Shown here: positions 2 to 62,486 of the stretch, in pieces
Numbering within the stretch: position 1 is the stretch's first letter
How the letters are laid out: each line of letters starts with the position of its first letter
Virus record (IMG/VR): IMGVR_UViG_3300045741_000082
Coordinates: 1 to 62,486 of that record
Direction: 5' to 3' (one strand)
DNA from: a virus
DNA: 62,486 nt
Made by a program: the position numbers and the translations under genes
Notes under the pieces: generated by a model
Told to the model about the DNA's origin: nothing
Databases searched by the model: none
What the model saw: only the letters and a program-made list of their open reading frames with translations

Positions 2-133
2 CTATATACGCTAGACTGTCTTAACCACGATAACAAGTTAATAAGTAAATATTCCCCTATAGAGTTGGATATGTATTGGGAGATAACTGGAGAATATGAC
101 AAAACTGTTAAAATACTATATGGTGCTAAATGA
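2..133 (+). CDS. Small LYG-tagged protein, 5' end outside window
   Basis: The reading frame is open from the window edge and ends in TVKILYGAK followed by a stop. The start lies outside the window. The visible 43 residues match no family I recognise. The C-terminal KILYG is the tag shared by many small genes at 51-54 kb and 59-61 kb, which places this gene in the same class. The stop codon overlaps the start of the next gene (ATGA), so the two are probably translationally coupled. Confidence 0.7.
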   Translation, partial: LYTLDCLNHDNKLISKYSPIELDMYWEITGEYDKTVKILYGAK

Positions 134-405
134 AATATGATTATAATACATTTAAAGAATTGTTTGATGCTCATATTCACTATGCTTATGAGGGTCAATA
201 TGGTTGCAGTTTGGATACTGAAGATCATGTTGTAGAGTGTGCGGCGTTCTATAAGCTCTACCTTAACTCTGACGGTACTGGACAATATAAGACTGAACAC
301 TTTACGTTTGACCCTAGACTGTGGCCTAAAGTAAAACTACTAGTAGAATTACTTACAGAAACACCAGCAGAAAAAATACTATTTAAGGAAATAAAAAAAG
401 GCTAG
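130..405 (+). CDS. Small acidic protein with LYG-type tag (KILF)
   Basis: This 91-residue protein of unknown function starts inside the stop of the preceding gene. It ends in AEKILFKEIKKG, a phenylalanine variant of the shared tag followed by a basic tail. The body (FKELFDAHIHYAYEGQYG, then an acidic and aromatic stretch) does not look like the SH3-like tagged proteins, so the tag seems to be attached to a different fold. The stop codon sits inside an RNA hairpin (400-444). It is the last gene of the left + strand block and faces the end of the late block. Confidence 0.7.
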   Translation: MKYDYNTFKELFDAHIHYAYEGQYGCSLDTEDHVVECAAFYKLYLNSDGTGQYKTEHFTFDPRLWPKVKLLVELLTETPAEKILFKEIKKG

Positions 406-51042: not shown

Positions 51043-51285
51043 TTAACCGTAAAGAATTTTCGTCATTTTTGTTATTTTTTCTTCTGGAATGATCTTTCCT
51101 AGCTGTTTTAGCCTATCTTTATGTATTGCCCTAATGTATTGGTGGTCCCATCTTCCATAATAGTCTACGTTAGCATCGTAACTCTTTATATCATAATATA
51201 TTCCAGTATCGTCTACATATACGTCTATGATTCTAAATAGTTGTTTTTGTTCAGTTAATAAGAAATCCCCTACATTAATTTCCAT
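51043..51285 (-). CDS. LYG-tagged small SH3-like protein
   Basis: An 80-residue protein with INVGDFLLTEQKQLFRIIDV, a short beta barrel-like pattern (G-D-x-x...Y-x-I-x), and the tag MTKILYG at its end. The start codon lies inside the tag codons of the upstream gene. It is the last gene of the array; here the tag uses TAC for Tyr and holds no start codon, as expected when no gene follows closely. Function unknown. Confidence 0.7.
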   Translation of the reverse strand: MEINVGDFLLTEQKQLFRIIDVYVDDTGIYYDIKSYDANVDYYGRWDHQYIRAIHKDRLKQLGKIIPEEKITKMTKILYG

Positions 51286-51601
51286 ACAATACCTTCATAG
51301 TTTTCTTATTAGCTTCAACCTTTTTTAGGAAATCTGGACTAATTTCTAACAGTACCTCATCTCCAATATAACCCACACGAGACACATATAACTTATTAGA
51401 GTTAAATAAAGACGGCCCAACAACCTCAAATAAGGACTTAAGGAAGGTACATCTAACTATCTCACCATCTGCAAAATCCTCTAATATGTTGCTAGTAGAC
51501 AACTTTTTATACATTTCTGGGCTTTTTCGTATATTAGCTTCTGCTATACTTATTACCATCTGATCGTCATCACTTATCGTCATTTCCTTTATCTTTCCCA
51601 T
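51275..51601 (-). CDS. LYG-tagged small protein
   Basis: A 108-residue protein (KEMTISDDDQMVISIAEANI, then DGEIVRCTFLKSLFEVVGPS) ending TMKVLYGN. Its tag DNA reads AAGGTATTGTATGGA-like across the codons and supplies the ATG of the next gene (51285). Its own ATG (51601) is inside the tag of the upstream gene. Body unrecognised. Confidence 0.7.
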   Translation of the reverse strand: MGKIKEMTISDDDQMVISIAEANIRKSPEMYKKLSTSNILEDFADGEIVRCTFLKSLFEVVGPSLFNSNKLYVSRVGYIGDEVLLEISPDFLKKVEANKKTMKVLYGN

Positions 51602-51824
51602 ATAACACCTTTATAGCCTTTACAGAGGCTTCTGAGTTGTACTTGGCAAGAAGACCTTCCCTAACCATTAACTGCCTTGGGTAGGCCGTTTTATCGCCTT
51701 TTAGGACTATCCCACAAACGTAAGGGTCTGACGGTATCTGAGGATTTAGCATGTGTACTGTTTTTACCACATATATCCTATTTTCGTAGAATACAAGGTC
51801 TCCAATATCAAACTTACTATCCAT
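51570..51824 (-). CDS. LYG-tagged small SH3-like protein
   Basis: An 84-residue protein (KFDIGDLVFYENRIYVVKTV, then VCGIVLKGDKTAYPRQLMV) ending AIKVLYGKDKGNDDK. Start at 51824 lies in the tag of the upstream gene. Its own tag contains AAAGGTGTTATATGG, with SD-like AAAGG six bases before the ATG of the next gene (51601). The G-D-x-V...Y-V-V-K-x-V pattern indicates a small SH3-like barrel. Confidence 0.75.
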   Translation of the reverse strand: MDSKFDIGDLVFYENRIYVVKTVHMLNPQIPSDPYVCGIVLKGDKTAYPRQLMVREGLLAKYNSEASVKAIKVLYGKDKGNDDK

Positions 51825-52047
51825 ATAGCACCAATAGGGTTAAAAGTCTTTTTTTATCAGTTATCTCTTTAGCTTTGTCTATTTCAATATTTATGGTATG
51901 TCTGTCTAAGATAAGCTCAAATAGGTTCAATCTATGCTTTCTTAAGGGTATACACTCAAAATATTCTTTACATTCGCTTAATTCGTTATAACCTATTCCA
52001 ACTACAATGTAGATGTCGCTTTGATATTCAATAAACCTAAATTTCAT
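51817..52047 (-). CDS. LYG-tagged small protein
   Basis: A 76-residue protein (FRFIEYQSDIYIVVGIGYNE) ending LLTLLVLYG. Its start ATG is in a copy of the sequence found at the tag junction of 52385 (19 identical bases), although no complete gene ends there. The tag overlaps the next gene's start (51824). An SD and a hairpin precede it (52060-52078). Function unknown. Confidence 0.7.
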   Translation of the reverse strand: MKFRFIEYQSDIYIVVGIGYNELSECKEYFECIPLRKHRLNLFELILDRHTINIEIDKAKEITDKKRLLTLLVLYG

Positions 52048-52060
52048 ATAGTAATTTCAA
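52042..52060 (-). other. Vestigial tag junction (19-bp repeat of 52380-52398)
   Basis: The - strand reads TTGAAATTACTATATGAAA, identical to the junction at 52398-52380. In the tag frame it would encode L-K-L-L-Y-E, but there is no usable start codon upstream, only a promoter-like motif and a hairpin. It looks like the remaining 3' end of a lost tagged gene, kept because it contains the start of the next gene. Confidence 0.6.
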
Positions 52061-52107
52061 GCTCTTATGAGAGCCTCCTACAATACTATATGTATATACT
52101 AAGTCAA
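52060..52107 (-). promoter_or_regulatory. Promoter-like motif copy 2 with hairpin leader
   Basis: The - strand reads GTTGACTTAGTATATACATA and then GTAGGAGG, followed by a perfect hairpin GCTCT-CATA-AGAGC before the start codon at 52047. The hairpin separates AGGAGG from the ATG (27 bases), so it may bring them together or block initiation. The motif is the same as at 51021 and 53891. Confidence 0.5.
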
Positions 52108-52385
52108 CGGTTATAAAGTATTTTGATCGTCTTTATTACGCTATTTAATTCGTTTCTGTGTATTTTAGTTAGGCACGGCTCAAATAGAAACGGGACCTTT
52201 ATAGGCGTTTTTGCCTCATAGCTTAGGCATTTTAGGGAATAGGTAGATTCTGATAAAGAAATTACTTCCCCCACCCAAACAGTAGGTATATTTTGAGCTG
52301 GTTTTAATTGGACTATTAATACGTCTCCAACCCTATGCCTAGCCTTTTTCGGCATGGGCCACCTAGCTCTTTTATTAGGTTTCAT
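52104..52385 (-). CDS. LYG-type small SH3-like protein
   Basis: A 93-residue protein (KARHRVGDVLIVQLKPAQNI, VWVGEVISLSESTYSLKCLS) ending TIKILYNR. The start lies in the tag DNA of the upstream gene. It is the last gene before the promoter-like motif at 52087; its tag (CTT TAT AAC) contains no ATG, as expected at an array end. Function unknown. Confidence 0.7.
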   Translation of the reverse strand: MKPNKRARWPMPKKARHRVGDVLIVQLKPAQNIPTVWVGEVISLSESTYSLKCLSYEAKTPIKVPFLFEPCLTKIHRNELNSVIKTIKILYNR

Positions 52386-52683
52386 ATAGTAATTTCAATG
52401 CTTTAGAAGGTTCCAATATTTCTATTAAGTCCTTGTGAATCAAGTAATTAAATCTAAATATGGACAAATCCCCATTTACTACAATAGCCAAAGCCAACAT
52501 ACACGTCATGGCGTCTGAGATGCCACTTGAAGAGTTGTAGAAGTCTCTATCTACTACTTCAGCTAATGTTCCCTTCTCGATTTCTATGTGCTCGTTTGTA
52601 TAGTCGTGGGGGCCTCCGTAAAAAGAGTATTGCCTCTTAAACTTAACAATATCTCCTATTTTCGGTAGTTTAGCTAATTTCAT
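52375..52683 (-). CDS. LYG-type small SH3-like protein
   Basis: A 102-residue protein starting at ATG 52683, where the start overlaps the stop of the upstream gene (a longer frame to 52716 is less likely). It has KLPKIGDIVKFKRQYSFYGG and ends ALKLLYET. The tag DNA (19 bp, shared with 52042-52060) contains the ATG of the next gene at 52385. SH3-like pattern: I-G-D-I-V-K-F. Confidence 0.7.
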   Translation of the reverse strand: MKLAKLPKIGDIVKFKRQYSFYGGPHDYTNEHIEIEKGTLAEVVDRDFYNSSSGISDAMTCMLALAIVVNGDLSIFRFNYLIHKDLIEILEPSKALKLLYET

Positions 52684-52903
52684 TAGGGTCCTTTTTAAAC
52701 AGGAGGTTAAAAGCATCTGTTTCTTCGTCCATCATAACTTCCACATCATCGACCTTCATGGGCAAACCGATCTTATCGACTCCTTTGTGTCCAGTACTGT
52801 GATTTACAGGCTTACATATTAGTAATTCTCCAATGATATTAACTACTTCGTAGATCTCATTGGTATTCTTAGCCCTTACTATGTTCTTTATCTTTACTTC
52901 CAT
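52670..52903 (-). CDS. LYG-type small protein (LLF variant)
   Basis: A 77-residue protein (VKIKNIVRAKNTNEIYEVVN, LLICKPVNHSTGHKGVDKIG) ending AFNLLFKKDPNEIS, a weak variant of the tag. Start at 52903 lies in the upstream tag. Its stop overlaps the next gene's start (NEIS against MKLAK). Function unknown. Confidence 0.65.
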   Translation of the reverse strand: MEVKIKNIVRAKNTNEIYEVVNIIGELLICKPVNHSTGHKGVDKIGLPMKVDDVEVMMDEETDAFNLLFKKDPNEIS

Positions 52904-53105
52904 AAAGTACTGTCCCTGCTAGGCATTTGGTCATTAAGTGACCTTGGTGGTGAGGTATTAATCCTGTATTAACTGATCCTATTATTTTGAATAGGATTCC
53001 TCTTTCTGTTATGTCCGTGACTATTGCCTTAATGTGTTGATATCTCTGGTCTATTGGCTCTATTACGTCTCCGACCTTATAGTTTATTGGTGGTATATCT
53101 TTCAT
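52869..53105 (-). CDS. LYG-tagged small SH3-like protein
   Basis: A 78-residue protein (INYKVGDVIEPIDQRYQHIK) ending AGTVLYGSKDKEHSKG. The pattern Y-K-V-G-D-V-I marks the SH3-like type. Its tag (CTT TAT GGA) carries the ATG of 52903. Function unknown. Confidence 0.7.
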   Translation of the reverse strand: MKDIPPINYKVGDVIEPIDQRYQHIKAIVTDITERGILFKIIGSVNTGLIPHHQGHLMTKCLAGTVLYGSKDKEHSKG

Positions 53106-53108
53106 CGC

Positions 53109-53456
53109 CTACCGAGACACTTTCTTGCTACTATCGGGTAACGCTTCCAGTGAGCACTGGGCGCTTCGCTCCCCAGCTCGGTTAGAACTCATCAAATCCA
53201 TACTATTGTCTTTCTTATCATACAATACCTTAATGGCTGGATTACAAGGCTCATATCTACTATGAACTATACTTTGACCTAACCATATTGGACTATCAGT
53301 ATAACCATTACTAGTATTTCTAAGCCTATAATGTCTATAAGGATAACTTGTAAAGGATGATACTTCCTCTATTTCTATTATCTCATATATTGCAGTTGTA
53401 CTCAGTTTACGAATCTTATCGCCCATCTTATACTTAAACTTATCAAAATCAATCAT
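53109..53456 (-). CDS. LYG-type small protein with GC-rich C-terminal extension
   Basis: A 115-residue protein (FKYKMGDKIRKLSTTAIYEI) with the tag PAIKVLYDKKDN at about residues 75-86, followed by a 28-residue extension (SSNRAGERSAQCSLEALPDS) encoded by an unusually GC-rich, hairpin-forming stretch (53130-53190). The extension seems to be a later addition. All other family members end within a few residues of the tag. Confidence 0.65.
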   Translation of the reverse strand: MIDFDKFKYKMGDKIRKLSTTAIYEIIEIEEVSSFTSYPYRHYRLRNTSNGYTDSPIWLGQSIVHSRYEPCNPAIKVLYDKKDNSMDLMSSNRAGERSAQCSLEALPDSSKKVSR

Positions 53457-53461
53457 GATTG

Positions 53462-53689
53462 TTACTTTCTCTTCGAGAGTTCTTGTCGGTTTTGGTTAAA
53501 TAGGATTTTGGTAGCTTTTTTATTTTCTACTTTTACTAAGTCCTTACGATCATTCCTTAAAAATACGTCATATACTGATAACTCTTCTATTTTCTTAGTA
53601 TTTTTATTGATATACAGAGTTTTCTGTTCTAATAGGTCTGGTAGTATATTAGTCTCATCTATCACATATCTGCCTTCCTTTTTACTCAT
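53462..53689 (-). CDS. LYG-type small protein (KILF variant)
   Basis: A 75-residue protein (EGRYVIDETNILPDLLEQKT, SVYDVFLRNDRKDLVKVEN) ending ATKILFNQNRQELSKRK. It is the first gene of the - strand array after the non-coding hub. A TTAGG sequence precedes the ATG. The body differs from the SH3-like members. Function unknown. Confidence 0.65.
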   Translation of the reverse strand: MSKKEGRYVIDETNILPDLLEQKTLYINKNTKKIEELSVYDVFLRNDRKDLVKVENKKATKILFNQNRQELSKRK

Positions 53690-53744
53690 ATATAACCTAA
53701 ACCTTTACAATTGTCAAATATATCTACAGTTTTTTTCTGTTGGA

Positions 53745-53764
53745 GGGAGGGACTTTAGGGAGGG
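53745..53764 (+). other. G-quadruplex motif
   Basis: Four GGG runs occur as GGGAGGGACTTTAGGGAGGG, matching G3-N1-G3-N6-G3-N1-G3. In DNA this AT-rich it is unlikely by chance. It lies in the non-coding hub beside an inverted repeat. Confidence 0.6.
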
Positions 53765-53890
53765 TGGTATACTACTATATAATCAACAGATTATAACTTC
53801 AGTATAGTATATCACCCTTTTCTATTGCGCTTAATTCTTTTTGAGAATTAAGCTTATATCACCTTATTATATAATACTGAATTCATATTC

Positions 53891-53912
53891 TTTATGTGTA
53901 TATACTAAGTAA
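53891..53912 (-). promoter_or_regulatory. Promoter-like motif, copy 3 of 3
   Basis: The - strand reads GTTTACTTAGTATATACACA, nearly the same as copies 1 and 2. It lies about 200 bp upstream of the first - strand tagged gene (53689), leaving a long structured leader. Confidence 0.5.
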
Positions 53913-53928
53913 ACTTTAAACATAGTTC

Positions 53929-53957
53929 TTGATATTTTACTAAAAGTAGGTTACTAT
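53929..53957 (+). promoter_or_regulatory. Candidate sigma-70-type promoter
   Basis: TTGATA (53929-53934) and TACTAT (53952-53957) are 17 bp apart on the + strand, upstream of the + strand tagged genes starting near 54090. The -10 box is imperfect. Confidence 0.4.
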
Positions 53958-54089
53958 TTGAAATTATAGGGTTATTTCTTAAAATATTTATTTTTAGTCA
54001 TATCCTCTAGTATAACTGATACTTATAATAAGTGTAAGTTACTATAAATGTAAGTATGAGTTTATTAACTTTAAGTAGAGGTAAATCAA

Positions 54090-54299
54090 ATCAAATATAG
54101 TGGAGAGTATAAATTATATAAAGATTTGTACGTAGTCAATAAAAGAATCTGTAAAGTCTATTTGCCGCCTTTATTTATGGAAGGGGATAAGTATTACTGG
54201 ATTTATTATGTTGACAATGGGGACGTTTCTATAGTAAAAGAAAAAGATCTGAAGCTTCTAGATAAAAAGATTAGTAAGGTGTTGTATGGGAAGAAATGA
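54090..54299 (+). CDS. LYG-tagged small protein with unclear start codon
   Basis: The frame (ISKVLYGKK at its end) is open from a stop at 54072 but has no ATG, GTG or TTG near its start. AGAGG at 54077-54081 lies eight bases before an ATC at 54090, which gives IKYSGEYKLYKDLYVVNKR and fits the length of relatives (69 residues). A TTG at 54126 is a shorter alternative. The tag DNA AAGGTGTTGTATGGG carries the ATG of the next gene. Start choice is uncertain. Confidence 0.55.
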   Translation: MKYSGEYKLYKDLYVVNKRICKVYLPPLFMEGDKYYWIYYVDNGDVSIVKEKDLKLLDKKISKVLYGKK

Positions 54300-54606
54300 T
54301 ATTAAAATAGGTGCTCTATTTATAGTAGAATATAATGATAGAAAGTATCTAATAGAGTTAATTGCTAGTGATGTATATACTCATAGTTACTATTGTTATG
54401 ATCATATAAATGATACTTACATTACTGCTCATATTAGTGATTTTGATGATCCTAATTTAAGATTACCTACTAAAGCTGAGTTATTGCTTTATAAGAATAA
54501 AGATAGACATAATGTTTATATGAAAGATGGATTTACTTATAGTTATGGCTATAGTCTTGATGGTTTTCCTTGTAATACTAAAAAAGATGGTAAAAATGAA
54601 GTATGA
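54286..54606 (+). CDS. Small SH3-like protein with diverged tag
   Basis: A 106-residue protein starting inside the tag of the upstream gene. It has DIKIGALFIVEYNDRKYLIE, an SH3-like start, then a diverged internal tag-like KAELLLYKNKDRHN at about residue 66, followed by about 30 more residues. Its stop overlaps the next start. Function unknown. Confidence 0.65.
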   Translation: MGRNDIKIGALFIVEYNDRKYLIELIASDVYTHSYYCYDHINDTYITAHISDFDDPNLRLPTKAELLLYKNKDRHNVYMKDGFTYSYGYSLDGFPCNTKKDGKNEV

Positions 54607-54823
54607 GGTTGGAGATTATTTAAGGCTAGGAGTTGATACATACATATATTTTAAAGTAATTGAAGTTAAAGAAGATAGATATGTTCTTAAACGATGTATA
54701 TCTGACGGTAAAACTATAGTAGCATTATTTGTTACTATTGATAGATTAAGTACTATTTGTAAAGTTAGTAAAACTGAAGTGTTATTAAATAGTTTTAATA
54801 GGAGGTATAAATGGATGAGTTAG
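54596..54823 (+). CDS. Small SH3-like protein with diverged tag
   Basis: A 75-residue protein; the start at 54596 (overlapping the upstream stop) gives MKYEVGDYLRLGVDTYIYFK, an SH3-like start, so the longer frame to 54527 is rejected. It ends KTEVLLNSFNRRYKWMS, in which TEVLLN occupies the place of the tag. An AGGAGG lies inside its end and serves the next gene. Confidence 0.6.
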   Translation: MKYEVGDYLRLGVDTYIYFKVIEVKEDRYVLKRCISDGKTIVALFVTIDRLSTICKVSKTEVLLNSFNRRYKWMS

Positions 54824-55137
54824 AAGGTAAGGTATTAGTAGCTAAACCAGGTAAGCAAAAGGAGTTTGAAGAGGCTATGGCTAATACAGTCAAAATAGCT
54901 CAAGGTACTCTTGGCTGGAAAGGACAAGCTGAGATGATGTGGGAAATAGGTGCTGCTGAAGTTATGTTTGGTATTAAAACTAAAAGTAAGAAAAAGGGTG
55001 TAGTTCAATTAGAAGATATGATTAGACAAGCTTACTTACAAACTATAATGGATAATGCAGAATGGGTTCCTGAAGAGCAAGCTAAAGGTAGACATCAGGC
55101 CAATAAGATTCTGTTTGGTGAGAAAGACCAAAAATAA
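54811..55137 (+). CDS. LYG-type tagged helical protein
   Basis: A 108-residue protein preceded by AGGAGG. The body is helical (KQKEFEEAMANTVKIAQGTL, VQLEDMIRQAYLQTIMDNAE) and not SH3-like, yet it ends HQANKILFGEKDQK. This shows the tag is carried by different bodies. Function unknown. Confidence 0.7.
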   Translation: MDELEGKVLVAKPGKQKEFEEAMANTVKIAQGTLGWKGQAEMMWEIGAAEVMFGIKTKSKKKGVVQLEDMIRQAYLQTIMDNAEWVPEEQAKGRHQANKILFGEKDQK

Positions 55138-55158
55138 ATTTTTTTTAAAATTTTTAGT

Positions 55159-55653
55159 TTAGCTATTATTTTTATTACTTTTTTTAAGGTTATCCCTTGC
55201 CCACTTTGGTTGTAAATTTGTATAGTGACAAGCTTTCTTAACCTCTTCTGGGTTATTAAGATCGAACCAAGATAAAGGAGTTTTGTGATCTATATGCCAT
55301 TGACCATAATTATCTAGAGTCATATCTGGTTCAAATAAGTTGGTAATATGTTTTAGAAATTCACTATAAGTGCAACCTAAGTATTTAATTGCAGAAACAT
55401 CACTTAATTGCTTTTTCCATATGCCTCTAGCCCGTCTTCTCAAATTATTTCTAATTCTTTGCTCAGGCCTTTTATTGCTCTTTGCTATAGATCTTCTATA
55501 GGATTCTGAGTTGGCGTATCTATTTGGTCTATGCCTTTTATTATCACAGGTTTTACACCTACTCTGTATTCCATTAGATCTAGAAGAACATCTATAAAAT
55601 TCTTCTTTGGATTTCTTTTCATTACATGTAAAACAAGTATATAAAGATTTCAT
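55159..55653 (-). CDS. HNH homing endonuclease (zinc-finger type)
   Basis: A 164-residue protein with N-terminal zinc pairs (TCFTC and RCKTC), a basic linker, and HNH core YGQWHIDHKTPLSWFD (His120, Asp122, His123) and ACHYTNLQPKWARDN. It has the same layout as 30497..31084. It lies convergent to the + strand tagged genes and is a likely mobile insertion. Confidence 0.85.
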   Translation of the reverse strand: MKSLYTCFTCNEKKSKEEFYRCSSRSNGIQSRCKTCDNKRHRPNRYANSESYRRSIAKSNKRPEQRIRNNLRRRARGIWKKQLSDVSAIKYLGCTYSEFLKHITNLFEPDMTLDNYGQWHIDHKTPLSWFDLNNPEEVKKACHYTNLQPKWARDNLKKSNKNNS

Positions 55654-55892
55654 AAAGAAATAATATCATCTGGTGGGGTTAGTGTCAATCGATTTTAAAA
55701 TTTTTTTAAAAATTGAGAAAGAGGGTTAGTACCCCTGGAGGGGTTAGGGGAGGTGACGTTTTTTGACCGTATCCCCTTCTGCAACAATCGTGCCAATGTC
55801 TCATTTTGATACATAATACGGATGTCTCATAATGATAAAAAAGCCCCTGTACCAGAACGATACAGAGGCCAAAGACATGGGGGAATGTCTTA

Positions 55893-56090
55893 TTATGACA
55901 CAGATGGGGTTGTCTGTGCCAATTTGATACACTGTTCTAGTTCATTTACTTCAACCAATTTTGTGTTATATTGTGCCTTAAGTGTTTCAAGTTGCAATTG
56001 TGCTGTATTGAGACGTGCTTCAATTTGAGACAACTGAATTTTCTTAGTGTTTAATTTTGATACATTAAGTTCTACATTAAATTTTCTCAT
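55893..56090 (-). CDS. Small coiled-coil protein
   Basis: A 65-residue protein with a heptad-like body (IQLSQIEARLNTAQLQLETL, then YNTKLVEVNELEQCIKLA). GGAG precedes the ATG, and the start codon lies inside a copy of the 15-bp motif (56084-56098), so translation or transcription may be controlled there. Two more copies are in the coding region. Function unknown. Confidence 0.6.
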   Translation of the reverse strand: MRKFNVELNVSKLNTKKIQLSQIEARLNTAQLQLETLKAQYNTKLVEVNELEQCIKLAQTTPSVS

Positions 56091-56154
56091 AATGATACTC
56101 CTATTATTTTAAATTAAGGCTATACCACAATAGTATAGCCTATGTTATTATGTA

Positions 56155-56397
56155 TTATGCAGTTGTAACTTTGGATCGAATAACTGCTTTCTGCTTTCTG
56201 ATATATCGAGCCACTGTCTCAAATCGAGTATATTGACCTGTTAATGCTTGAATAATGCCTACTACTGATTGTGCATAATCATTTGATGCAGCATAACCCA
56301 ATGTGATAAGCCAAGTCTCACCACGAGTCTCAATATGAGACTTTACTACTTCTTTTACTTGAGTACCTATTGATTGTTTATTGTTTATGTTATACAT
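56155..56397 (-). CDS. Small helical protein
   Basis: An 80-residue protein (NKQSIGTQVKEVVKSHIETR, LITLGYAASNDYAQSVVGII, YTRFETVARYIRKQKAVIR). The C-terminal half could be a DNA-binding helix bundle, but no family is recognised. A perfect copy of the 15-bp motif (56327-56341) lies in its coding DNA. Confidence 0.55.
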   Translation of the reverse strand: MYNINNKQSIGTQVKEVVKSHIETRGETWLITLGYAASNDYAQSVVGIIQALTGQYTRFETVARYIRKQKAVIRSKVTTA

Positions 56398-56726
56398 TTT
56401 ATTTCCCCTTGTTATAACTCACTTAATTGTGAATCATACTTACTACTATTGCATTATGAATGCCAACAATAGCTCAGTGAATTCAATAGTCTCAGTATGA
56501 TATTATGTTGAACTTATATACACTATTATGAGATTTTCTACTTATATTAGTAGTTTCAATAGGTTAAGTCACTGTAGAACTATTAGTCACTTTACATAGG
56601 TTTGACATACCATAATGATACGTTATCCGGTGTTGAGTTATGGTCTATAGGTATATAATCCGGAAACTGTATTATATTGAGACTGGAATAGGATTTGCAC
56701 CTATACCAGCCTGTATTGAATTTAGA
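56398..56726. other. Gap with 15-bp motifs and a composite repeat
   Basis: No gene is visible. The region holds motif copies at 56489, 56607 and 56669 and a composite ATAATCCGGAAACTGTATTA (56656-56675) related to those at 58047 and 58119. Confidence 0.5.
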
Positions 56727-57404
56727 TTACTTGACTTTTGCCCAATTTGTATTGGTATAGGACTTTTGGCCATGATACACTAGACCTATTTTATTATTCG
56801 GTCCTAGTGCAGCTACTAGATCGTCATTAGTTGCATCGGTATAACCTGCAGCCAACAGGTCAGTCTCAGATGGAAACACTTTGGAGTGTCTATGATTGAT
56901 ACAATCAATAAGGTGATCTTGCTTGCCACCGAAACTATATATCAGTCTAAAGTTATTAGGTATATTGCCATTATAAGACAACTCATTAAAAATCTGTATC
57001 ATTTTGGTATAGGCATAGAATCTCACATCGAGACACTTCTCAATAATCTCAATCCAAGACATGGCATAATCTTTGCTATAGAAGTCACCAGAATCATGTA
57101 TCCTTATGAGACACTTATTATCTTTTACTTGGGATTTCATGTATTTAAGTCTTATTTCGGCCACCATCAAATCAACAAAATTCTCGTTTTGAGTCAACTT
57201 AAGTCTTTCTTCGTAGGCATTCACTACATTCCCAAAACGATACGTACCACTTCGAGCATAGCAGCCTGTAGCGCAAACCCCTGCCATTGGACACGTCTTA
57301 AGTCCTGTATTAGACAAGAATGCAGGTATACCGAAGTTATACACGTCTATTCCATTTTGAGACGATTTTTTCATTTTCCCGTTTTGGGTCAATATACTAC
57401 CCAT
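56727..57404 (-). CDS. GP88-family phage protein
   Basis: A 225-residue protein of the phage gp88 type. The conserved Cys cluster is KTCPMAGVCATGCYARSGTY (residues 37-56; Cys38, Cys44, Cys48), followed by LIRIHDSGDFYSKDYAMSWI and RFYAYTKMIQIF. These match the family pattern as I recall it. The cluster may bind metal. Its biochemical role is not established. Its start codon lies in the VIYG codons of the upstream gene. Confidence 0.8.
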   Translation of the reverse strand: MGSILTQNGKMKKSSQNGIDVYNFGIPAFLSNTGLKTCPMAGVCATGCYARSGTYRFGNVVNAYEERLKLTQNENFVDLMVAEIRLKYMKSQVKDNKCLIRIHDSGDFYSKDYAMSWIEIIEKCLDVRFYAYTKMIQIFNELSYNGNIPNNFRLIYSFGGKQDHLIDCINHRHSKVFPSETDLLAAGYTDATNDDLVAALGPNNKIGLVYHGQKSYTNTNWAKVK

Positions 57405-57582
57405 ATATCACCTCAACTTCCGATTTTAAGTATAGTTCTTCACCAGTATCATAGGCCACTTCGAAGTGAGCTGATGATTCACCACAACATCCTATGCCAT
57501 TGGCAGGATGCATACAATAAGGACAAACTTCAATTTCCTCAATGATATCAGCTACATGTAGTTTAATCTTATTCTGTCTCAT
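57397..57582 (-). CDS. Small zinc-binding protein ending in VIYG
   Basis: A 61-residue protein with VCPYCMHPANGIGCCGESS, a CxxC...CC zinc site. It ends SEVEVIYG, a variant of the tag; the DNA GAGGTGATATATGGG carries both an SD-like GAGG and the ATG of the GP88 gene. Its own start overlaps a copy of the 15-bp motif (57576-57590). Confidence 0.65.
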   Translation of the reverse strand: MRQNKIKLHVADIIEEIEVCPYCMHPANGIGCCGESSAHFEVAYDTGEELYLKSEVEVIYG

Positions 57583-57583
57583 A

Positions 57584-57775
57584 TTAAGCCACCTTTCTAT
57601 TATCGTTATTAAATTTAATAATTAGTAGTTCTATTATGCAATCTTTAATAGTAGACCTATGAACTGATAGTTGCCCCAATATTTTAAGACTAGCATTGGG
57701 TCCTCTTGCTAGTTCCTTCGCTGTAAGAGACTCGTTATACTTTAATAATTTGTCCAGTTCTATTAGTGTAAGCAT
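57584..57775 (-). CDS. Small protein, possible helix-turn-helix
   Basis: A 63-residue protein (LIELDKLLKYNESLTAKELA, GPNASLKILGQLSVHRSTIK). The pattern SLTAKELA...SLKILGQLSVHRSTI suggests a small DNA-binding fold, but this is weak. It lies 1 bp upstream of the zinc protein. Confidence 0.5.
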   Translation of the reverse strand: MLTLIELDKLLKYNESLTAKELARGPNASLKILGQLSVHRSTIKDCIIELLIIKFNNDNRKVA

Positions 57776-57842
57776 TGTATTTCCCCTCGTTATATTATTA
57801 CTATACTCATCGGTTTATTATTAAATAACTTTAATTAATTAT

Positions 57843-58049
57843 TTAATATTTACATAATTGTATGTTATGCAGTATAGGTGCCAATCTCATATTGATATTT
57901 GTATGTAATTTCAAGCAGTTATATAATGTTTCAATAGTAGAATTTGTATAACTTTTAGTCAATTTAAGCATTATTAGTAATATAGTAATAATATCATATA
58001 CTTGTAGGCTGTATGAGTTATATACGATTTGACAGTCATTTTGAGACAT
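57843..58049 (-). CDS. Questionable small ORF
   Basis: A 68-codon frame (MSQNDCQIVYNSYSLQVYDI). Its ATG lies in a copy of the 15-bp motif, and there is no good SD. The composition (Ile, Leu, Tyr, Asn-rich) is close to what AT-rich non-coding DNA would give. It may be real because two other genes here start within the motif. Confidence 0.3.
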   Translation of the reverse strand: MSQNDCQIVYNSYSLQVYDIITILLIMLKLTKSYTNSTIETLYNCLKLHTNINMRLAPILHNIQLCKY

Positions 58050-58588
58050 AATCCGTAAGCTGTATCATTTTAGGACTGGCACGGTCCTTGCATGGGGTAT
58101 TCTTAGTGTCAATTTGATACAAAATCCGGAAGTTGTATCATACTGAGATGGCATGCCTATTGCATCTGTACTGTATTGAGGCGGCCCACACTAATACGTC
58201 TCATAACGATATTGGCATGAATAATGCATATAGCAATATCTATGCCATGTCTCATATTGAAACGTCTCAATTTGAGATGTCTCATAATGGGGTTGTCTCA
58301 TAAAGGGACTAAAAGAGCTAAATTCCTATAGAAAAAATTATTACTATATGTAATATATGGAGTAAGTATGTGTTATTATTGGATTATTTGTATATTTATT
58401 GTTATAAATTGTGTAAATAGTAGTAATATTAGTGGTTTATGTGTTATTTTTAGTAATAATTGTAAATTTATTAGGAATAACAGGGGTTTGAGTGAAACCG
58501 TAGTTCTTTTAGACAATTGTAAAATGACCTTAATTCTCATTATTCCTCAATATATACAACAACTTACACAAAAACTATCCTACATACC
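58050..58588. other. Gap with composite repeats and tandem motif cluster
   Basis: No convincing gene is visible. The left part has two composite elements (58033-58076 and 58106-58149) and further motif copies, ending in four tandem copies at 58249-58309. The rest (58310-58588) is very AT-rich; an open frame at 58368 is not supported by an SD or composition. Confidence 0.5.
58249..58309 (+). repeat. Four tandem 15-bp motifs
   Basis: Copies start at 58249, 58264, 58279 and 58295, spaced 15, 15 and 16 bp: GTCTCATATTGAAAC, GTCTCAATTTGAGAT, GTCTCATAATGGGGT, GTCTCATAAAGGGAC. The left half is constant and the right half decays. It lies upstream of the + strand micro-gene array. Confidence 0.75.
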
Positions 58589-58708
58589 ATGTCAAATATA
58601 TCAACACCTTATATCGTGTATATTACTTATAAACATGGCACCAAATATGCATATAGTTTACCGTATGGAAAACAAGCCTATATTAAATCTAAGGGGGGTA
58701 TAAAATGA
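58589..58708 (+). CDS. 39-residue micro-protein
   Basis: A short frame encodes MSNISTPYIVYITYKHGTKY, then AYSLPYGKQAYIKSKGGIK, tyrosine- and lysine-rich. Its stop overlaps the next start (ATGA), and GGGGGG inside its end is the SD of the next gene. Its own SD is poor. Function unknown. Confidence 0.5.
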   Translation: MSNISTPYIVYITYKHGTKYAYSLPYGKQAYIKSKGGIK

Positions 58709-58944
58709 TCTTAATGGACTTAAATAAGAGAGAGTTAATAAAGAATAAGCTACACAAAGATAAACTACCTAAATACTACTTTAGCCTATACCTGTTATAT
58801 AGGCTTAACGACTCTATTTATGTTATAGGCTATAATGACATTGACATTATCATTAGGTTAGAGAGCATATTTAAAGCATCTAACAGAGAAACGGCAGTTA
58901 CTAGTAGCTATCCTTTTGAAGTAATGGATTGGAGTACAAAATAA
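58705..58944 (+). CDS. Small basic/aromatic protein
   Basis: A 79-residue protein (DLNKRELIKNKLHKDKLPKY, YLLYRLNDSIYVIGYNDIDI) ending FEVMDWSTK. It is preceded by GGGGGG and starts on the previous stop. No tag is present. Function unknown. Confidence 0.65.
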   Translation: MILMDLNKRELIKNKLHKDKLPKYYFSLYLLYRLNDSIYVIGYNDIDIIIRLESIFKASNRETAVTSSYPFEVMDWSTK

Positions 58945-59063
58945 ACATATTAAACTTGTTAAACGAACACAATGCAGAACTAGGACTTAAACCCTTAGTA
59001 GTAGAACAGCCACCAGAACCTATTGAAACTATTAACGAAGAAGACCAAGAGGCAATAGAATGA
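58929..59063 (+). CDS. 44-residue acidic micro-protein, TTG start
   Basis: A frame open from TTG at 58929 encodes MEYKINILNLLNEHNAELGL, then KPLVVEQPPEPIETINEEDQ and EAIE. It overlaps the end of the upstream gene and its stop overlaps the next ATG. Its acidic, Pro-containing composition differs from AT-rich noise. AAGAGG near its end is the SD for the next gene. Confidence 0.5.
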   Translation: MEYKINILNLLNEHNAELGLKPLVVEQPPEPIETINEEDQEAIE

Positions 59064-59275
59064 TAATATCTAAGTACATAACCATCAACGATACCATAAT
59101 AGACACTACTAATATAACTAGTGTAACCTATATACCAGAAACAGGCCCTACTGATGAGTACGACTATAACAGTAGAATGTGCGTAGTATTCAATAACGGT
59201 TATACTGTATCTATCCACTGTACTGAGAAACAGTATAATGACCTACGAATACATCTAGGAGCTTTTTTTATATGA
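59060..59275 (+). CDS. Small beta-rich protein
   Basis: A 71-residue protein (ISKYITINDTIIDTTNITSV, RMCVVFNNGYTVSIHCTEKQ) preceded by AAGAGG. The pattern resembles small beta-sandwich or antirestriction-like proteins only in composition. Stop overlaps the next start. Function unknown. Confidence 0.65.
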   Translation: MIISKYITINDTIIDTTNITSVTYIPETGPTDEYDYNSRMCVVFNNGYTVSIHCTEKQYNDLRIHLGAFFI

Positions 59276-59406
59276 TTAACTCTATTAAGTACTTTCTATT
59301 CTGTTTACTTATGGCTACTGTTATGGTGTGTTTGGTGTGGCCGACTGTCATCTCGGATATATTGCTTTACAGATTTAAGGGTTACATTAACAAAGAGAAT
59401 AACTAA
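59272..59406 (+). CDS. 44-residue single-span membrane protein
   Basis: The frame encodes MINSIKYFLFCLLMATVMVC, LVWPTVISDILLYRFKGYIN and KENN: one membrane helix and a basic/charged tail. The start overlaps the upstream stop and the stop overlaps the next ATG (TAATG). GGAG lies ten bases before the start. An early membrane-acting peptide is plausible. Confidence 0.6.
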   Translation: MINSIKYFLFCLLMATVMVCLVWPTVISDILLYRFKGYINKENN

Positions 59407-59630
59407 TGCTTAAAATAGGCCAGTTTCCAATAGGTTATCAATTTAAAGAGGAAATCTACCCTAAAGAAGTGATAATGACAGTTATTGGATACGATTCACT
59501 ACACCATTCGTACAGGATTAGGTGGGTAGAACATGATGGAAAAGTTGCTGTAGGTCCTTATTACTCACACGAATATATAGCTACCAAAGAGCCAGTTGAT
59601 AAGAACTATAAACTACTATATGGAGTTTAG
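59406..59630 (+). CDS. LYG-tagged small SH3-like protein
   Basis: A 74-residue protein (LKIGQFPIGYQFKEEIYPKE, YRIRWVEHDGKVAVGPYYSH) ending NYKLLYGV. The tag DNA includes ATGGAG, whose GGAG acts as SD for the next gene starting at 59633 rather than supplying the start. Function unknown. Confidence 0.7.
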   Translation: MLKIGQFPIGYQFKEEIYPKEVIMTVIGYDSLHHSYRIRWVEHDGKVAVGPYYSHEYIATKEPVDKNYKLLYGV

Positions 59631-59632
59631 TT

Positions 59633-59872
59633 ATGAAAATAGTAACTGAAAGTCAAGCTTGGGATATGATAACTAGAAGCCTTATAGATACTAGTAGAGA
59701 GACATTAGTAAATATTATAATTGGTTATTTACGAGAATATGGTGATAGTACAACAGGTAAATTTACAGTATCGGGATTAGCTAATGTATTAGAAAGTCTT
59801 TTTGATGATAAGTTTAAAGTTGTGGCTGATTCTAGTGCAGCCCATATCTTATATAATGATAAGAAGAGTTAA
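59633..59872 (+). CDS. LYG-type tagged helical protein
   Basis: A 79-residue helical protein (TESQAWDMITRSLIDTSRET, FTVSGLANVLESLFDDKFKV) ending AAHILYNDKKS. The body is not SH3-like. Start preceded by GGAG. Function unknown. Confidence 0.7.
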   Translation: MKIVTESQAWDMITRSLIDTSRETLVNIIIGYLREYGDSTTGKFTVSGLANVLESLFDDKFKVVADSSAAHILYNDKKS

Positions 59873-59874
59873 CT

Positions 59875-60093
59875 GTGTATAAATTAGGTGATTGCTTTAG
59901 AAACAAACACACAGGCCATCTAGTTGAAATCATTGAGGTTCATACCACATTTGATGGCGTTAACTACTATACTGTAAAGAAGTTAAACAAACCCACTATA
60001 CAAACATTTCAAGTTAACTACTCGTTATTACAAAATAATTACGAAAAAAGCAACTTGGCACAGGTCTTGTATAGTAATAAGAGTAACAAGTGA
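59875..60093 (+). CDS. LYG-type small SH3-like protein, GTG start
   Basis: A 72-residue protein from GTG at 59875 with AAGAG upstream: YKLGDCFRNKHTGHLVEIIE is a clear SH3-like start, and it ends LAQVLYSNKSNK. Function unknown. Confidence 0.7.
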   Translation: MYKLGDCFRNKHTGHLVEIIEVHTTFDGVNYYTVKKLNKPTIQTFQVNYSLLQNNYEKSNLAQVLYSNKSNK

Positions 60094-60100
60094 GGTTATT

Positions 60101-60334
60101 ATGAAAATCCAATTAAGTGCAAAATGTAGCGATCTATTTAGTTGCTCTGTAACTGATAATAAAGACAATCTATTAGTTGATGGTTATGATGGATATGTGC
60201 CAGCATTTATGCCAGATGAGCATTATGGCGACTACGTAATACTTGATATTGACGTTAAAACAGGTCAAATCCTTAATTGGAGAAAAGATGCTGAAAAGTT
60301 AGTAAGACAATTCATTAAAGAAGAGACTAAATAA
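60101..60334 (+). CDS. Small acidic beta protein
   Basis: A 77-residue protein (KIQLSAKCSDLFSCSVTDNK, VDGYDGYVPAFMPDEHYGDY, VILDIDVKTGQILNWRKDAE). No LYG tag. It is preceded by GAGG. The GQILNW part recalls a family of small phage and plasmid proteins, without a known function. Confidence 0.65.
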   Translation: MKIQLSAKCSDLFSCSVTDNKDNLLVDGYDGYVPAFMPDEHYGDYVILDIDVKTGQILNWRKDAEKLVRQFIKEETK

Positions 60335-60343
60335 GAGTTTATT

Positions 60344-60487
60344 ATGAATATATTAATACAAACCACACTAACTCTATTACTATTAAGCTTATCTATATTT
60401 GCTATAGTGTTATTAATACCATATTTTCCCTTATTCATACTTATATGGGCTATAAGCCAATATGTAACAGGAGCACAGCACAAATGA
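60344..60487 (+). CDS. 47-residue single-span membrane protein
   Basis: The frame encodes MNILIQTTLTLLLLSLSIFA, then IVLLIPYFPLFILIWAISQY and VTGAQHK, one or two close membrane helices. AAGAG precedes the start. Stop overlaps the next ATG. Function unknown. Confidence 0.6.
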   Translation: MNILIQTTLTLLLLSLSIFAIVLLIPYFPLFILIWAISQYVTGAQHK

Positions 60488-60570
60488 ATAGATTTAAAGT
60501 CAATTGTATTAAAATACAACTATATTTACAGTCTTATATGAATTTCTTACGTAAAAGAGATTCTTTATGA
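60484..60570 (+). CDS. 28-residue micro-protein
   Basis: A very short frame (MNRFKVNCIKIQLYLQSYMN, FLRKRDSL) linking two membrane peptides by overlapping starts and stops. GGAG lies ten bases upstream. It may be a coupling peptide rather than a functional protein. Confidence 0.4.
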   Translation: MNRFKVNCIKIQLYLQSYMNFLRKRDSL

Positions 60571-60680
60571 TTAAAAGAGTATTCAATACGTTAGTTCTTA
60601 TTTTAGGGTGTTATTTGTTGTTGGTGGCGGTTTCTTTAACCATAAACTTAATATACTTATATTTTAAGTATTTGTTTTAA
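60567..60680 (+). CDS. 37-residue single-span membrane protein
   Basis: The frame encodes MIKRVFNTLVLILGCYLLLV, then AVSLTINLIYLYFKYLF, one membrane helix with a basic N-terminus. Start overlaps the upstream stop. Function unknown. Confidence 0.55.
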   Translation: MIKRVFNTLVLILGCYLLLVAVSLTINLIYLYFKYLF

Positions 60681-60690
60681 GAGGTATTTA

Positions 60691-60909
60691 ATGGGTTTTA
60701 TTAATAGTAATGATAGTTATGGTATTTGGTACGATAGAGATAACGTAAAGCATTATGGATTAATAGGACTATACGATAGTGATACTGATCTAGTAGAGTT
60801 TATTATGCTACCTGACTACAAACGAATTATTATATCAATTGACAGTATTGATTTAGTACAATGTCCAATAGAAAAGAAAGCAATTAAGGTATTATATGAA
60901 AGTAAGTAA
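60691..60909 (+). CDS. LYG-tagged small SH3-like protein
   Basis: A 72-residue protein (GIWYDRDNVKHYGLIGLYDS) preceded by AAGAGG and ending AIKVLYESK. The tag DNA AAGGTATTATATGAA carries both SD-like AAGG and the ATG of the metalloprotease lipoprotein. Function unknown. Confidence 0.7.
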   Translation: MGFINSNDSYGIWYDRDNVKHYGLIGLYDSDTDLVEFIMLPDYKRIIISIDSIDLVQCPIEKKAIKVLYESK

Positions 60910-61339
60910 ATTATTAATACTATTGACTTTAATACAAACAGCTTGCACTCCGATTGGAAAACCATTAATGCCAAGAACAAATCCTTTGGTAGTACCTTAT
61001 GTTAAACAATGGGAAAATATAACTAATAGAAAGCAGCACACACCAATTATAATAGGTACAGTAAGTGATGAATTTTTTGGTATTTGTTATAAGTCTAGCG
61101 ACCCTTATTATAATATTATTATTCTTAATAAAAACTTTTTCTATGGTTTAGATAGTACTGAAAAATTAGAATTAGTTATGCATGAGTTAGGACACTGTGA
61201 TTTGGGTTATGAGCACAATAGTAAACCTGCATTAATAGATGGTTGTCCTTATAGTATAATGAATGCTTATCTATTTAATTCATCATGCTTTAATGCTGAT
61301 TATGATCATTATATAAGTGAATATTTAAATGAAGAGTAA
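60896..61339 (+). CDS. Zinc metallopeptidase-like lipoprotein
   Basis: A 147-residue protein. The N-terminus (VSKLLILLTLIQTACTP) is a lipoprotein signal with Cys17. The motif MHELGHCDLGYEH (residues 95-107) gives HExxH plus a third His, and SIMNAYLF (120-127) resembles a metzincin Met-turn. It would be a membrane-anchored zinc protease in the periplasm. Such a protein in a phage may modify the cell surface, exclude other phages or aid lysis; this is inferred. Start lies in the upstream tag. Confidence 0.75.
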   Translation: MKVSKLLILLTLIQTACTPIGKPLMPRTNPLVVPYVKQWENITNRKQHTPIIIGTVSDEFFGICYKSSDPYYNIIILNKNFFYGLDSTEKLELVMHELGHCDLGYEHNSKPALIDGCPYSIMNAYLFNSSCFNADYDHYISEYLNEE

Positions 61340-61387
61340 AATGTTAAGAGTTACAATAAAACAAATAACCTATAAAGGAGAGTTATT

Positions 61388-62486
61388 ATGAAAAGAATGA
61401 TAATTAGTTTAGCGGTATTGGCTGCTATTGGATGTTCGCCAAAGAAGGAAAAGGTAAGAATAGTAAATGGCAAAGATGGTACAAATTGTTCTACCGAAGC
61501 TGCAGTAAATGGAGTTTCTATCAAATGTGGAGATAGTGAACCTTTAACAGTTACCAATGGTAAAGATGGTGCTAAAGGTGATCAAGGTCTTAAAGGAGAC
61601 AAAGGCGATAAAGGAGATCAAGGTTTTACAGGACTAACTGGTTCTGTAGGTGCCACTGGAGCACAAGGTATTCAAGGCGTAGCTGGTACTAATGGTAAAG
61701 ATGGAGTTAATGGTAAGAATGGACTAGATGGTAAAAATGGGTCTCATGTTTATTCAGCTAATAGAAATCCTTTAGTAACTGATTCTGGAGCTAATGATGA
61801 TGTGTTTATAAATACAGTTACGTTTGATTTTTATCAAATGGTGGCTGGAGTTTGGACACTTAAAGGAAACATGAAGGGTTCCAATGGTTTAAATGGTAAA
61901 GATGGAGCAACTATTTATAGTGCCAATAGGCCACCAGTAGACACAGAAGGTTCTAACAATGATCTATTTGTTGACAATACTACTTTTAACTTTTATCAGA
62001 AAGTAAATAATATGTGGGTACTTAAAGGAAATATCAAAGGCGCTAAAGGAGATACTGGTAGTCAGGGTATAGCTGGTACTAATGGTTCTAATGGATTAAC
62101 AGGTGCAACGGGAGCTAATGGGGCGGTAGGCCCTCAAGGTCCTAAAGGCGACACAGGTAGCGTTGGCCCAACTGGAGCTACTGGCCCTAAGGGTGCAACT
62201 GGAGATGTCGGTCCTCAAGGCCTTATTGGTCCTCAAGGCCCTGCAGGTACTAGTGGAGCAAACTTCACAGAATATACATTTGCTGCACAAAAAGTTTGTT
62301 ATAAAATCAATGATCTATATTTTTTGCAAGAAAGTACTTCTATTAAGGTATTTAGTGATAGTTTATGTAAGACTCAAGTTGCAGCACTTCAAGGTGATGA
62401 TGTGACTCTATATCATAATAAAGTACTGTATGTCGGAGATGAAATTGTTAATGATGTGAATTACTCTCAAGCAAAGATGGCTATTA
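61388..62486 (+). CDS. Collagen-like lipoprotein, 3' end outside window
   Basis: At least 366 residues, open to the window edge, preceded by AGGAGAG. A lipoprotein signal (MKRMIISLAVLAAIGCSP) gives Cys16. Then follow collagen-type G-x-y repeats (GDQGLKGDKGDKGDQGFTG) in three blocks, separated by two copies of a 40-residue module of the form YSANRxP...GxNxDxF...TFxFYQ...W-x-L-K-G-N. A Cys-containing globular domain begins near residue 300. A surface-displayed trimeric lipoprotein is expected. Confidence 0.8.
   Translation, partial: MKRMIISLAVLAAIGCSPKKEKVRIVNGKDGTNCSTEAAVNGVSIKCGDSEPLTVTNGKDGAKGDQGLKGDKGDKGDQGFTGLTGSVGATGAQGIQGVAGTNGKDGVNGKNGLDGKNGSHVYSANRNPLVTDSGANDDVFINTVTFDFYQMVAGVWTLKGNMKGSNGLNGKDGATIYSANRPPVDTEGSNNDLFVDNTTFNFYQKVNNMWVLKGNIKGAKGDTGSQGIAGTNGSNGLTGATGANGAVGPQGPKGDTGSVGPTGATGPKGATGDVGPQGLIGPQGPAGTSGANFTEYTFAAQKVCYKINDLYFLQESTSIKVFSDSLCKTQVAALQGDDVTLYHNKVLYVGDEIVNDVNYSQAKMAI

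What the first reader, a model, noticed from the sequence alone, without database searches (positions are those of the whole stretch)
51043..60909. A C-terminal tag K-[VI]-L-[YF]-[GND] shared by about eighteen small proteins with different bodies
Clear members end at 133, 405, 54299, 55137, 59630, 59872, 60093 and 60909 (+ strand), and at 51043, 51275, 51570, 51817, 52104, 52375, 52670, 52869, 53109 and 53462 (- strand); 57397 is a variant. Most have an SH3-like body (Y-x-x-G-D...), but 54811..55137, 59633..59872 and 130..405 do not. A tag kept across unrelated bodies suggests a shared docking, targeting or degradation signal. I know no described system with this tag.
Basis: partly seen in the sequence, partly recalled or inferred. 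Interest (0 to 1): 0.9.

Follow-up and report, generated by a model that had tools for sequence, protein, structure and literature searches.

The report
Shared C-terminal tag on phage proteins
Dozens of otherwise unrelated small proteins in a group of uncultured tailed phages all end in the same short, lineage-specific peptide, probably an address tag that docks them onto a common partner nobody has identified.

Summary
Nine of the 18 listed proteins carry the strict K-[VI]-L-[YF]-[GND] peptide; the rest are near variants. The window is a fragment of an uncultured myovirus-like phage. In its relatives the tag (consensus T-[EK]-[LA]-x-[KE]-[VIA]-L-Y-[GE]) marks up to about 40 small proteins per genome: 258 of 1162 small genes against about 12 expected (including about 15 TerS hits and near-duplicate contigs). 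Large structural and replication proteins lack it.

Bodies are mostly not detectably related (171 clusters, 137 singletons): SH3-like, zinc-ribbon (DUF6011, DUF7685), alpha/beta. One untagged ortholog stops where the tag would begin. Codon use shows selection on the peptide; in about a third of cases the same DNA also starts the next gene. Each lineage has its own dialect (KAxKVLYG, GELxEAIYE, EWxEILYG), shared by non-homologous bodies. Two sister genomes lack it but share a different tag (DTIxYMKxxK / DTIxxLKxLK); two others have none.

Best reading: a short C-terminal docking motif for one co-evolving partner, working like the T4 capsid-targeting sequence or T4 clamp-binding tails without meeting either definition. 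The partner is unknown. Degron, DNA-element and end-of-one-fold readings are disfavoured.

The parts
2..133 (+). partial tagged gene (cut by the window start), ends TVKILYGAK
   Evidence: translation
130..405 (+). tagged gene with alpha-beta-beta-beta-alpha body (weakly PC4-like); tag AEKILFK at 367-387; ortholog in G022 has the body without the tag
51043..51285 (-). tagged SH3-like gene; tag MTKILYG at 51046-51066 (TAC GGT, no overlapping start codon)
51275..51601 (-). tagged gene; tag TMKVLYG at 51281-51301; its TATG holds the ATG of 51043-51285; orthologs end KVLYD, KILYD, KALYD and, in G004, TELFKAIYG
51570..51824 (-). tagged SH3-like gene; tag AIKVLYG at 51597-51617; linker before the tag varies in length among orthologs while LYG is invariant
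51817..52047 (-). tagged gene; tag TLLVLYG at 51820-51840; aligned with six orthologs, body 30-39% identical, tag kept
52104..52385 (-). tagged SH3-like gene; tag TIKILYN at 52110-52130
52375..52716 (-). tagged gene; tag ALKLLYE at 52381-52401; overlapping start codon of 52104-52385
52670..52903 (-). tagged gene; variant tag AFNLLFK at 52694-52714
52869..53105 (-). tagged SH3-like gene; variant tag AGTVLYG at 52899-52919; overlapping start codon of 52670-52903
53109..53456 (-). tagged gene; tag AIKVLYD at 53217-53237 followed by 36 residues
53462..53689 (-). tagged gene; tag ATKILFN at 53495-53515
54126..54299 (+). tagged gene; tag ISKVLYG at 54270-54290; overlapping start codon of 54286-54606
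54286..54606 (+). gene with an internal tag-like AELLLYK at 54475-54495, followed by 37 residues
54811..55137 (+). tagged gene, body without SH3-like signature; tag ANKILFG at 55099-55119
57397..57582 (-). doubtful member, EVEVIYG at 57400-57420 with an overlapping start codon of the next gene; not recovered by the PSSM
59406..59630 (+). tagged gene; tag NYKLLYG at 59604-59624
59633..59872 (+). tagged gene, body without SH3-like signature; variant tag AAHILYN at 59837-59857
59875..60093 (+). tagged SH3-like gene; variant tag LAQVLYS at 60055-60075
60691..60909 (+). tagged gene; tag AIKVLYE at 60880-60900; overlapping start codon of 60896-61339

Best explanation
The peptide is a genuine, modular C-terminal short linear motif: an add-on of about 10 residues, probably a short amphipathic helix, carried by many otherwise unrelated small accessory proteins of one phage genome. 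Its likely job is to dock all of them onto one common partner that co-evolves with the tag, probably a phage-encoded hub. A prime candidate for the hub is a procapsid or core component that loads them into the virion; the alternative is a replication or transcription complex. Each variable body would supply a different activity. Shown here: the tag is real, selected as a peptide, present on unrelated bodies, separable, and lineage-specific. Inferred: that it docks, that there is one partner, that the partner is phage-encoded, and what the partner is.
For: Enrichment: 258 of 1162 small genes against about 12 expected, consensus T-[EK]-[LA]-x-[KE]-[VIA]-L-Y-[GE]; the six matches in proteins of 220 residues or more look like chance or LAGLIDADG motif matches. 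Motif-free search: G001 LYG 19 vs 0.4, G011 LxxAxY 25 vs 0.7. Not one family: 171 body clusters, 137 singletons; DUF6011, DUF7685 and weak L7/L12 bodies. Separable: the G022 ortholog of 130-405 stops where the tag would start; AlphaFold puts the core of that body at pLDDT 65-79 and the tag at about 36-42 as a detached short helix; linker length varies before an invariant LYG. Peptide-level selection: where the tag is not used as a start site, Tyr is TAC 41 / TAT 60, identical to background 40/60. Co-evolving partner: tags of non-homologous proteins are more alike within a genome (15.6) than between genomes (11.8); shuffled-label difference sd 0.25, maximum 0.72, observed 3.8. Orthologs differ in tag by genome (KVLYG in the window, ELFKAIYG in G004). 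A second tag type occupies the same place in sister genomes G018 (13 proteins) and G022 (about 19).
Against: No partner was found. A mirror-tree ranking of 16 shared, mostly structural families gave no stand-out (best partial r 0.32, TerS), and dialect distance tracks phage phylogeny (r 0.67), as simple vertical drift would. Two related genomes of 95-112 kb (G020, G021) show no detectable tag, so the system is dispensable. Concerted change within a genome could in part reflect cassette turnover and gene conversion. The AlphaFold model of the SH3-like example was too poor (pLDDT 50) to say whether the tag packs on the barrel.
Confidence: 0.6

Rival explanations
1. Specific form of the best reading: the tag is a capsid-targeting signal. 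Tagged small proteins are loaded into the procapsid and injected with the DNA, like the diverse internal proteins of T-even phages that share only a capsid-targeting sequence.
For: Same logic as T4: a highly diverse set of small defence proteins with only a conserved targeting sequence (PMC3012670). Tagged sets are variable accessory genes. The window array 51043-53689 lies upstream of, and in the same direction as, TerS, TerL and the structural genes. The G011 dialect EL-x-E-A resembles a T4-type protease site (own knowledge).
Against: The tag is C-terminal. No prohead protease of family S78 was found in 12 records; S77 also gave no match but its control did not ring. In G001 many tagged genes lie among the replication genes. 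Scaffold and capsid genes are also present in tagless G020 and G021, and neither the capsid protein nor 42594-43538 co-varies with dialect beyond phylogeny.
Confidence: 0.25
2. The tag binds a sliding clamp or RNA polymerase, like the interchangeable C-terminal tails of T4 gp43, gp55 and gp33, tethering nucleic-acid-binding bodies to replication or transcription complexes.
For: Short C-terminal motif after a variable linker, as in T4 (PMC2988020). Many bodies look nucleic-acid-binding (SH3-like, zinc ribbons, weakly PC4-like).
Against: No beta clamp in 18 records, with controls ringing; no T4-type clamp match, control uninformative. DNA polymerase A, helicase-primase and ligase of G001 are untagged. 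Lineage dialects do not suggest a conserved host partner.
Confidence: 0.2
3. The tag is simply the C-terminal structural element (last helix) of one highly diverged SH3-like family.
For: GD-type SH3-like signatures are enriched among tagged proteins (78 of 198 vs 66 of 559 untagged), and the tag usually follows the presumed last strand.
Against: 120 of 198 lack the signature; tagged zinc-ribbon and alpha/beta bodies exist; the untagged G022 ortholog; genome dialect overrides body; linker length varies.
Confidence: 0.12
4. The conserved sequence is a DNA or RNA element (Shine-Dalgarno plus overlapping ATG, or a cassette-recombination junction) and the peptide is a by-product.
For: In 79 of 244 tagged genes the Tyr-x codons TAT-GNN hold the start codon of the next called gene. 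In that subset Lys and Glu prefer AAG and GAG (SD-like) and Tyr is always TAT.
Against: In the subset not used as a start, Tyr and Phe codon use equals background and Lys is close to it, while the peptide consensus is the same. Tags with TAC, TTT or TAT-AAC hold no ATG. The reading frame is constant.
Confidence: 0.03
5. The tag is a degradation signal that makes the small proteins short-lived.
For: Four of the tagged relatives of 97-115 kb encode ClpP-like proteases.
Against: Up to 37 residues may follow the tag, which a C-terminal degron would not tolerate. ClpP-like genes do not track the tag: present in tagless G020, not found in tagged G022.
Confidence: 0.06

Closest known systems
T4 capsid-targeting sequence (CTS) of internal proteins
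   Same: One short address peptide shared by diverse small accessory proteins with unrelated bodies (PMC3012670)
   Different: T4 CTS is N-terminal and removed by the prohead protease (own knowledge); here the tag is C-terminal, no S78 protease was found, up to about 40 carriers per genome, lineage dialects; virion packaging untested
T4 sliding-clamp-binding C-termini of gp43, gp55 and gp33
   Same: Short C-terminal docking motif after a divergent linker, shared by proteins with different bodies and interchangeable in T4 (PMC2988020)
   Different: Three carriers of known function in T4; here no phage beta clamp was found and the DNA polymerase is untagged
Encapsulin cargo-loading peptides (own knowledge)
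   Same: C-terminal short peptide on unrelated cargo proteins, docking to an HK97-fold shell
   Different: Few cargos per system, no phage particle; partner here unknown
C-terminal degrons such as ssrA (own knowledge)
   Same: Short C-terminal peptide acting in trans on any body
   Different: Needs the free C-terminus; here long extensions follow the tag in some members

Membership tests
T4-type capsid-targeting sequence | N-terminal position on the cargo | tested here: not met
   the tag is C-terminal in all members
T4-type capsid-targeting sequence | prohead protease (S77 or S78) encoded | tested here: inconclusive
   no S78 match in 12 records with controls ringing; S77 no match but control silent
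T4-type capsid-targeting sequence | carriers packaged in the virion and injected | not testable with these tools
   needs virion proteomics
T4 clamp-binding C-terminal motif | sliding clamp encoded by the phage | tested here: inconclusive
   beta clamp PF02767 absent from 18 records; T4 clamp PF02916 no match but control silent
T4 clamp-binding C-terminal motif | the replicative DNA polymerase carries the same tail | tested here: not met
   G001 DNA polymerase A ends SIPLVAEPIIADNWGEAK
C-terminal degron (ssrA-like) | recognition residues at the extreme C-terminus | tested here: not met
   up to 37 residues follow the tag
Single SH3-like protein family | all tagged proteins share one homologous body | tested here: not met
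   171 clusters; DUF6011, DUF7685 and alpha/beta bodies
DNA-level regulatory or recombination element | nucleotide conservation beyond what the peptide requires | tested here: not met
   Tyr and Phe codon use equals background and Lys is close to it where the tag is not a start site; met only in the start-site subset

The most novel reading that the evidence does not exclude
This phage group runs a lineage-specific C-terminal address code: up to about 40 small effector-like proteins per genome, with interchangeable bodies, are recruited by one co-evolving phage-encoded receptor through a short tag that can diverge into dialects and was at least once replaced by a different tag (LYG type versus YMK/TLK type).
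Probability: 0.4. Interest if true: 0.9.

Novelty: new variant of a known kind. Interest (0 to 1): 0.78.

Why it matters
Most small phage genes have no assigned function. A shared tag assigns dozens of them per genome to one system at a stroke and gives a handle (the last 12 residues) to find their common partner. If they are packaged or recruited as a set, the tag would predict effector and counter-defence candidates directly from sequence, and the dialects would allow the receptor to be found by co-evolution. It also shows one stretch of DNA used twice, as a peptide tag and as the next gene's ribosome-binding site and start codon.

Tried and rejected
DNA-element and overlapping-start explanation: rejected by the codon test. 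Sliding clamp: no beta clamp in 18 records; T4 clamp search uninformative. TerS as a tagged protein (its tail REINxILHxK scores well with the PSSM): set aside, because it does not follow the dialects and a similar tail is also kept in tagless G021. ClpP or degron: no correlation with the tag. Receptor by presence and absence or mirror tree: no stand-out. AlphaFold of the SH3-like family: pLDDT 50, uninformative. Profile searches of two tagged families in viral contigs failed for lack of conserved stretches. tblastn of two tagged bodies in 50,697 phage records found nothing; Pfam and PHROGs place only a few of 85 bodies. Host search with the capsid profile in 84,980 genomes found nothing. Literature searches found no description of such a tag. 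The PC4-like resemblance of 130-405 (Foldseek E 0.06) was not confirmed by sequence and is only a lead. Membrane-targeting helix (MinD-like, own knowledge): disfavoured because the G011 dialect carries conserved acidic residues.
Full report
WHAT WAS CLAIMED AND CHECKED. Nine of the 18 fit the strict pattern K-[VI]-L-[YF]-[GND]; the others are near variants, and 57397 is a weak one. The tag is close to the C-terminus but not bound to it: 1-11 residues usually follow the Tyr/Phe, 36 in 53109-53456 and 37 in 54286-54606. In the window 15 of 70 small genes match a short regex in the last 25 residues against 1.5 expected from shuffles, and none of 24 large genes does.

WHERE IT COMES FROM. The window is a 62,486-base IMG/VR virus record with no annotated host. 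It has tail sheath, capsid, portal and large terminase genes. It has no near relative among 50,697 phage records: no megablast match to a 10 kb structural stretch, capsid protein at about 30% identity, terminase at about 29%. Related metagenomic contigs, several of 95-117 kb, were found with the terminase, capsid and TerS proteins and fetched whole or nearly whole. G001 encodes a family A DNA polymerase, helicase-primase, ligase and ribonucleotide reductase.

THE TAG IN RELATIVES. An iterated PSSM gives the consensus T-[EK]-[LA]-x-[KE]-[VIA]-L-Y-[GE]. It finds 258 of 1162 small genes (under 220 residues) where shuffles set at a 1% rate give about 12. Six matches in proteins of 220 residues or more look like LAGLIDADG motifs or chance. 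The 258 include about 15 TerS matches and near-duplicate contigs (G012 of G001, G016 of G011, G007 of G003); without TerS and with a higher cut-off 235 remain. Because a PSSM trained on its own hits is circular, a motif-free test was run: all gapped three-residue patterns in the last 20 residues against shuffles. It rediscovers the tag in G001 (LYG 19 vs 0.4), G005 (9 vs 0.5), G011 (LxxAxY 25 vs 0.7), G006 (LYG 10 vs 0.5) and others; G009 and G010 are too small to stand out. Phages immuto, Effie and PaMx28 show nothing of the kind.

NOT ONE FAMILY, AND SEPARABLE. Tag-stripped bodies form 171 clusters with 137 singletons. About 40% (78 of 198) show an SH3-like GD signature. Others contain DUF6011 (E 6e-9), DUF7685 zinc ribbons (E 1e-4 and 2e-3) or, weakly, an L7/L12 C-terminal domain (E 0.0026, below the family's cut-off). 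The 130-405 family is the clearest case: five orthologs, four with the tag and one in G022 whose protein stops where the tag would begin. AlphaFold gives that family an alpha-beta-beta-beta-alpha body with its core at pLDDT 65-79 and a detached short tag helix at about 36-42. In the 51570 family the linker differs in length while LYG is invariant. Across 52 ortholog pairs the tag core is 58% identical and the body 34%.

PEPTIDE, NOT DNA. In 79 of 244 tagged genes the Tyr codon and the following G form TATG, the start codon of the next called gene, often with AAGG or GAGG upstream. That could make the peptide a by-product of a translation signal. Splitting the tags settles it: where the tag is not a start site, Tyr is TAC 41 / TAT 60 against a background of 40/60, Lys is AAA 28 / AAG 22 (p = 0.11), and the peptide consensus is unchanged; where it is a start site, Tyr is TAT 68 of 68 and AAG and GAG are enriched. 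Leu codons do differ mildly from background (p = 0.001), but are spread over all six codons. The peptide is selected as a peptide, and the packed arrays additionally use its DNA to start the next gene.

DIALECTS. Window and G001: K-A-x-[KE]-V-L-Y-G. G006: E-[LM]-x-[KE]-V-L-Y-G. G009: E-W-x-E-I-L-Y-G. G004: T-E-L-x-K-L-L-Y. G011: G-E-L-x-E-A-[IL]-Y-[EG]. Among pairs with no detectable body homology, tags are more alike within a genome (15.6 BLOSUM units) than between genomes (11.8); the difference of 3.8 compares with a permutation sd of 0.25 and maximum of 0.72. Orthologs also differ by genome: the 51275 family ends KVLYGN in the window and TELFKAIYGKK in G004. Dialect distance follows phage phylogeny (r = 0.67), so dialects are inherited and drift in concert across many genes.

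A SECOND TAG. More distant genomes with about 60-64% capsid identity lack the LYG tag. G018 instead has L-[ED]-[TP]-[IL]-x-Y-M-K-x-x-K on 13 small proteins (YMxxxK, 13 vs 0.5). G022 has [TVP]-I-x-x-L-K-x-x-K on about 19 (IxxLxxxK, 19 vs 2.3). Some of these bodies look like zinc ribbons by their cysteine spacing. G020 and G021 have no clear tag. A shared C-terminal tag is thus a recurrent property of this phage group, and the sequence used can change.

HOW IT MOST LIKELY WORKS. A short motif, kept across unrelated bodies, separable, uniform within a genome and drifting between genomes, is what a docking site for one co-evolving partner would look like. I favour a phage-encoded partner because dialects follow the phage. 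Two precedents work this way: the T4 capsid-targeting sequence shared by diverse internal defence proteins (PMC3012670) and the interchangeable clamp-binding C-termini of T4 gp43, gp55 and gp33 (PMC2988020). Neither membership test is passed: the tag is C-terminal; no S78 protease or beta clamp was found, while the S77 and T4-clamp searches had silent controls; and the polymerase is untagged. The degron reading conflicts with long C-terminal extensions, and ClpP-like genes do not track the tag. No receptor candidate emerged from presence and absence or distance correlation.

LIMITS. Genes were called by a greedy longest-ORF rule. Contigs are metagenomic and their completeness is unknown. The dialect test removes pairs with BLAST-detectable body similarity (E below 1) but cannot exclude deeper homology. 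Everything about the partner and the function is inference.

Noticed in passing
window 45706-46413: LAGLIDADG endonuclease gene (Pfam E 7e-31) between the large terminase and portal genes.
   Followed up: no
window 49671-50264 and relatives: TerS ends in a conserved REIN-x-[IL]-[IL]-H-x-K tail that resembles the tag; a similar tail is also kept in tagless G021 and it does not follow the dialects.
   Followed up: partly
window 55800-56100 and 58030-58310: Dispersed imperfect repeats (GTCTCATTTTGATACATAATACGG-like) in stretches with little convincing coding sequence between the tagged gene arrays.
   Followed up: no
window 61340-62486: Collagen-like Gly-X-Y repeat protein running off the window end.
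   Followed up: no
window 60896-61339: Small, probably secreted protein with a HELGHC metallopeptidase-like motif, starting inside the tag of the preceding gene.
   Followed up: no
G001, G002, G003, G004, G018, G020, G023: Each record matches the ClpP/SppA-fold protease family twice.
   Followed up: partly
L043:3573-3998 (G001): Tagged protein with a weak match to the ribosomal L7/L12 C-terminal domain.
   Followed up: partly
L048:3134-4594 (G001) and relatives: VWA/DUF2201 metallopeptidase-like gene conserved across the group, including tagless genomes.
   Followed up: no
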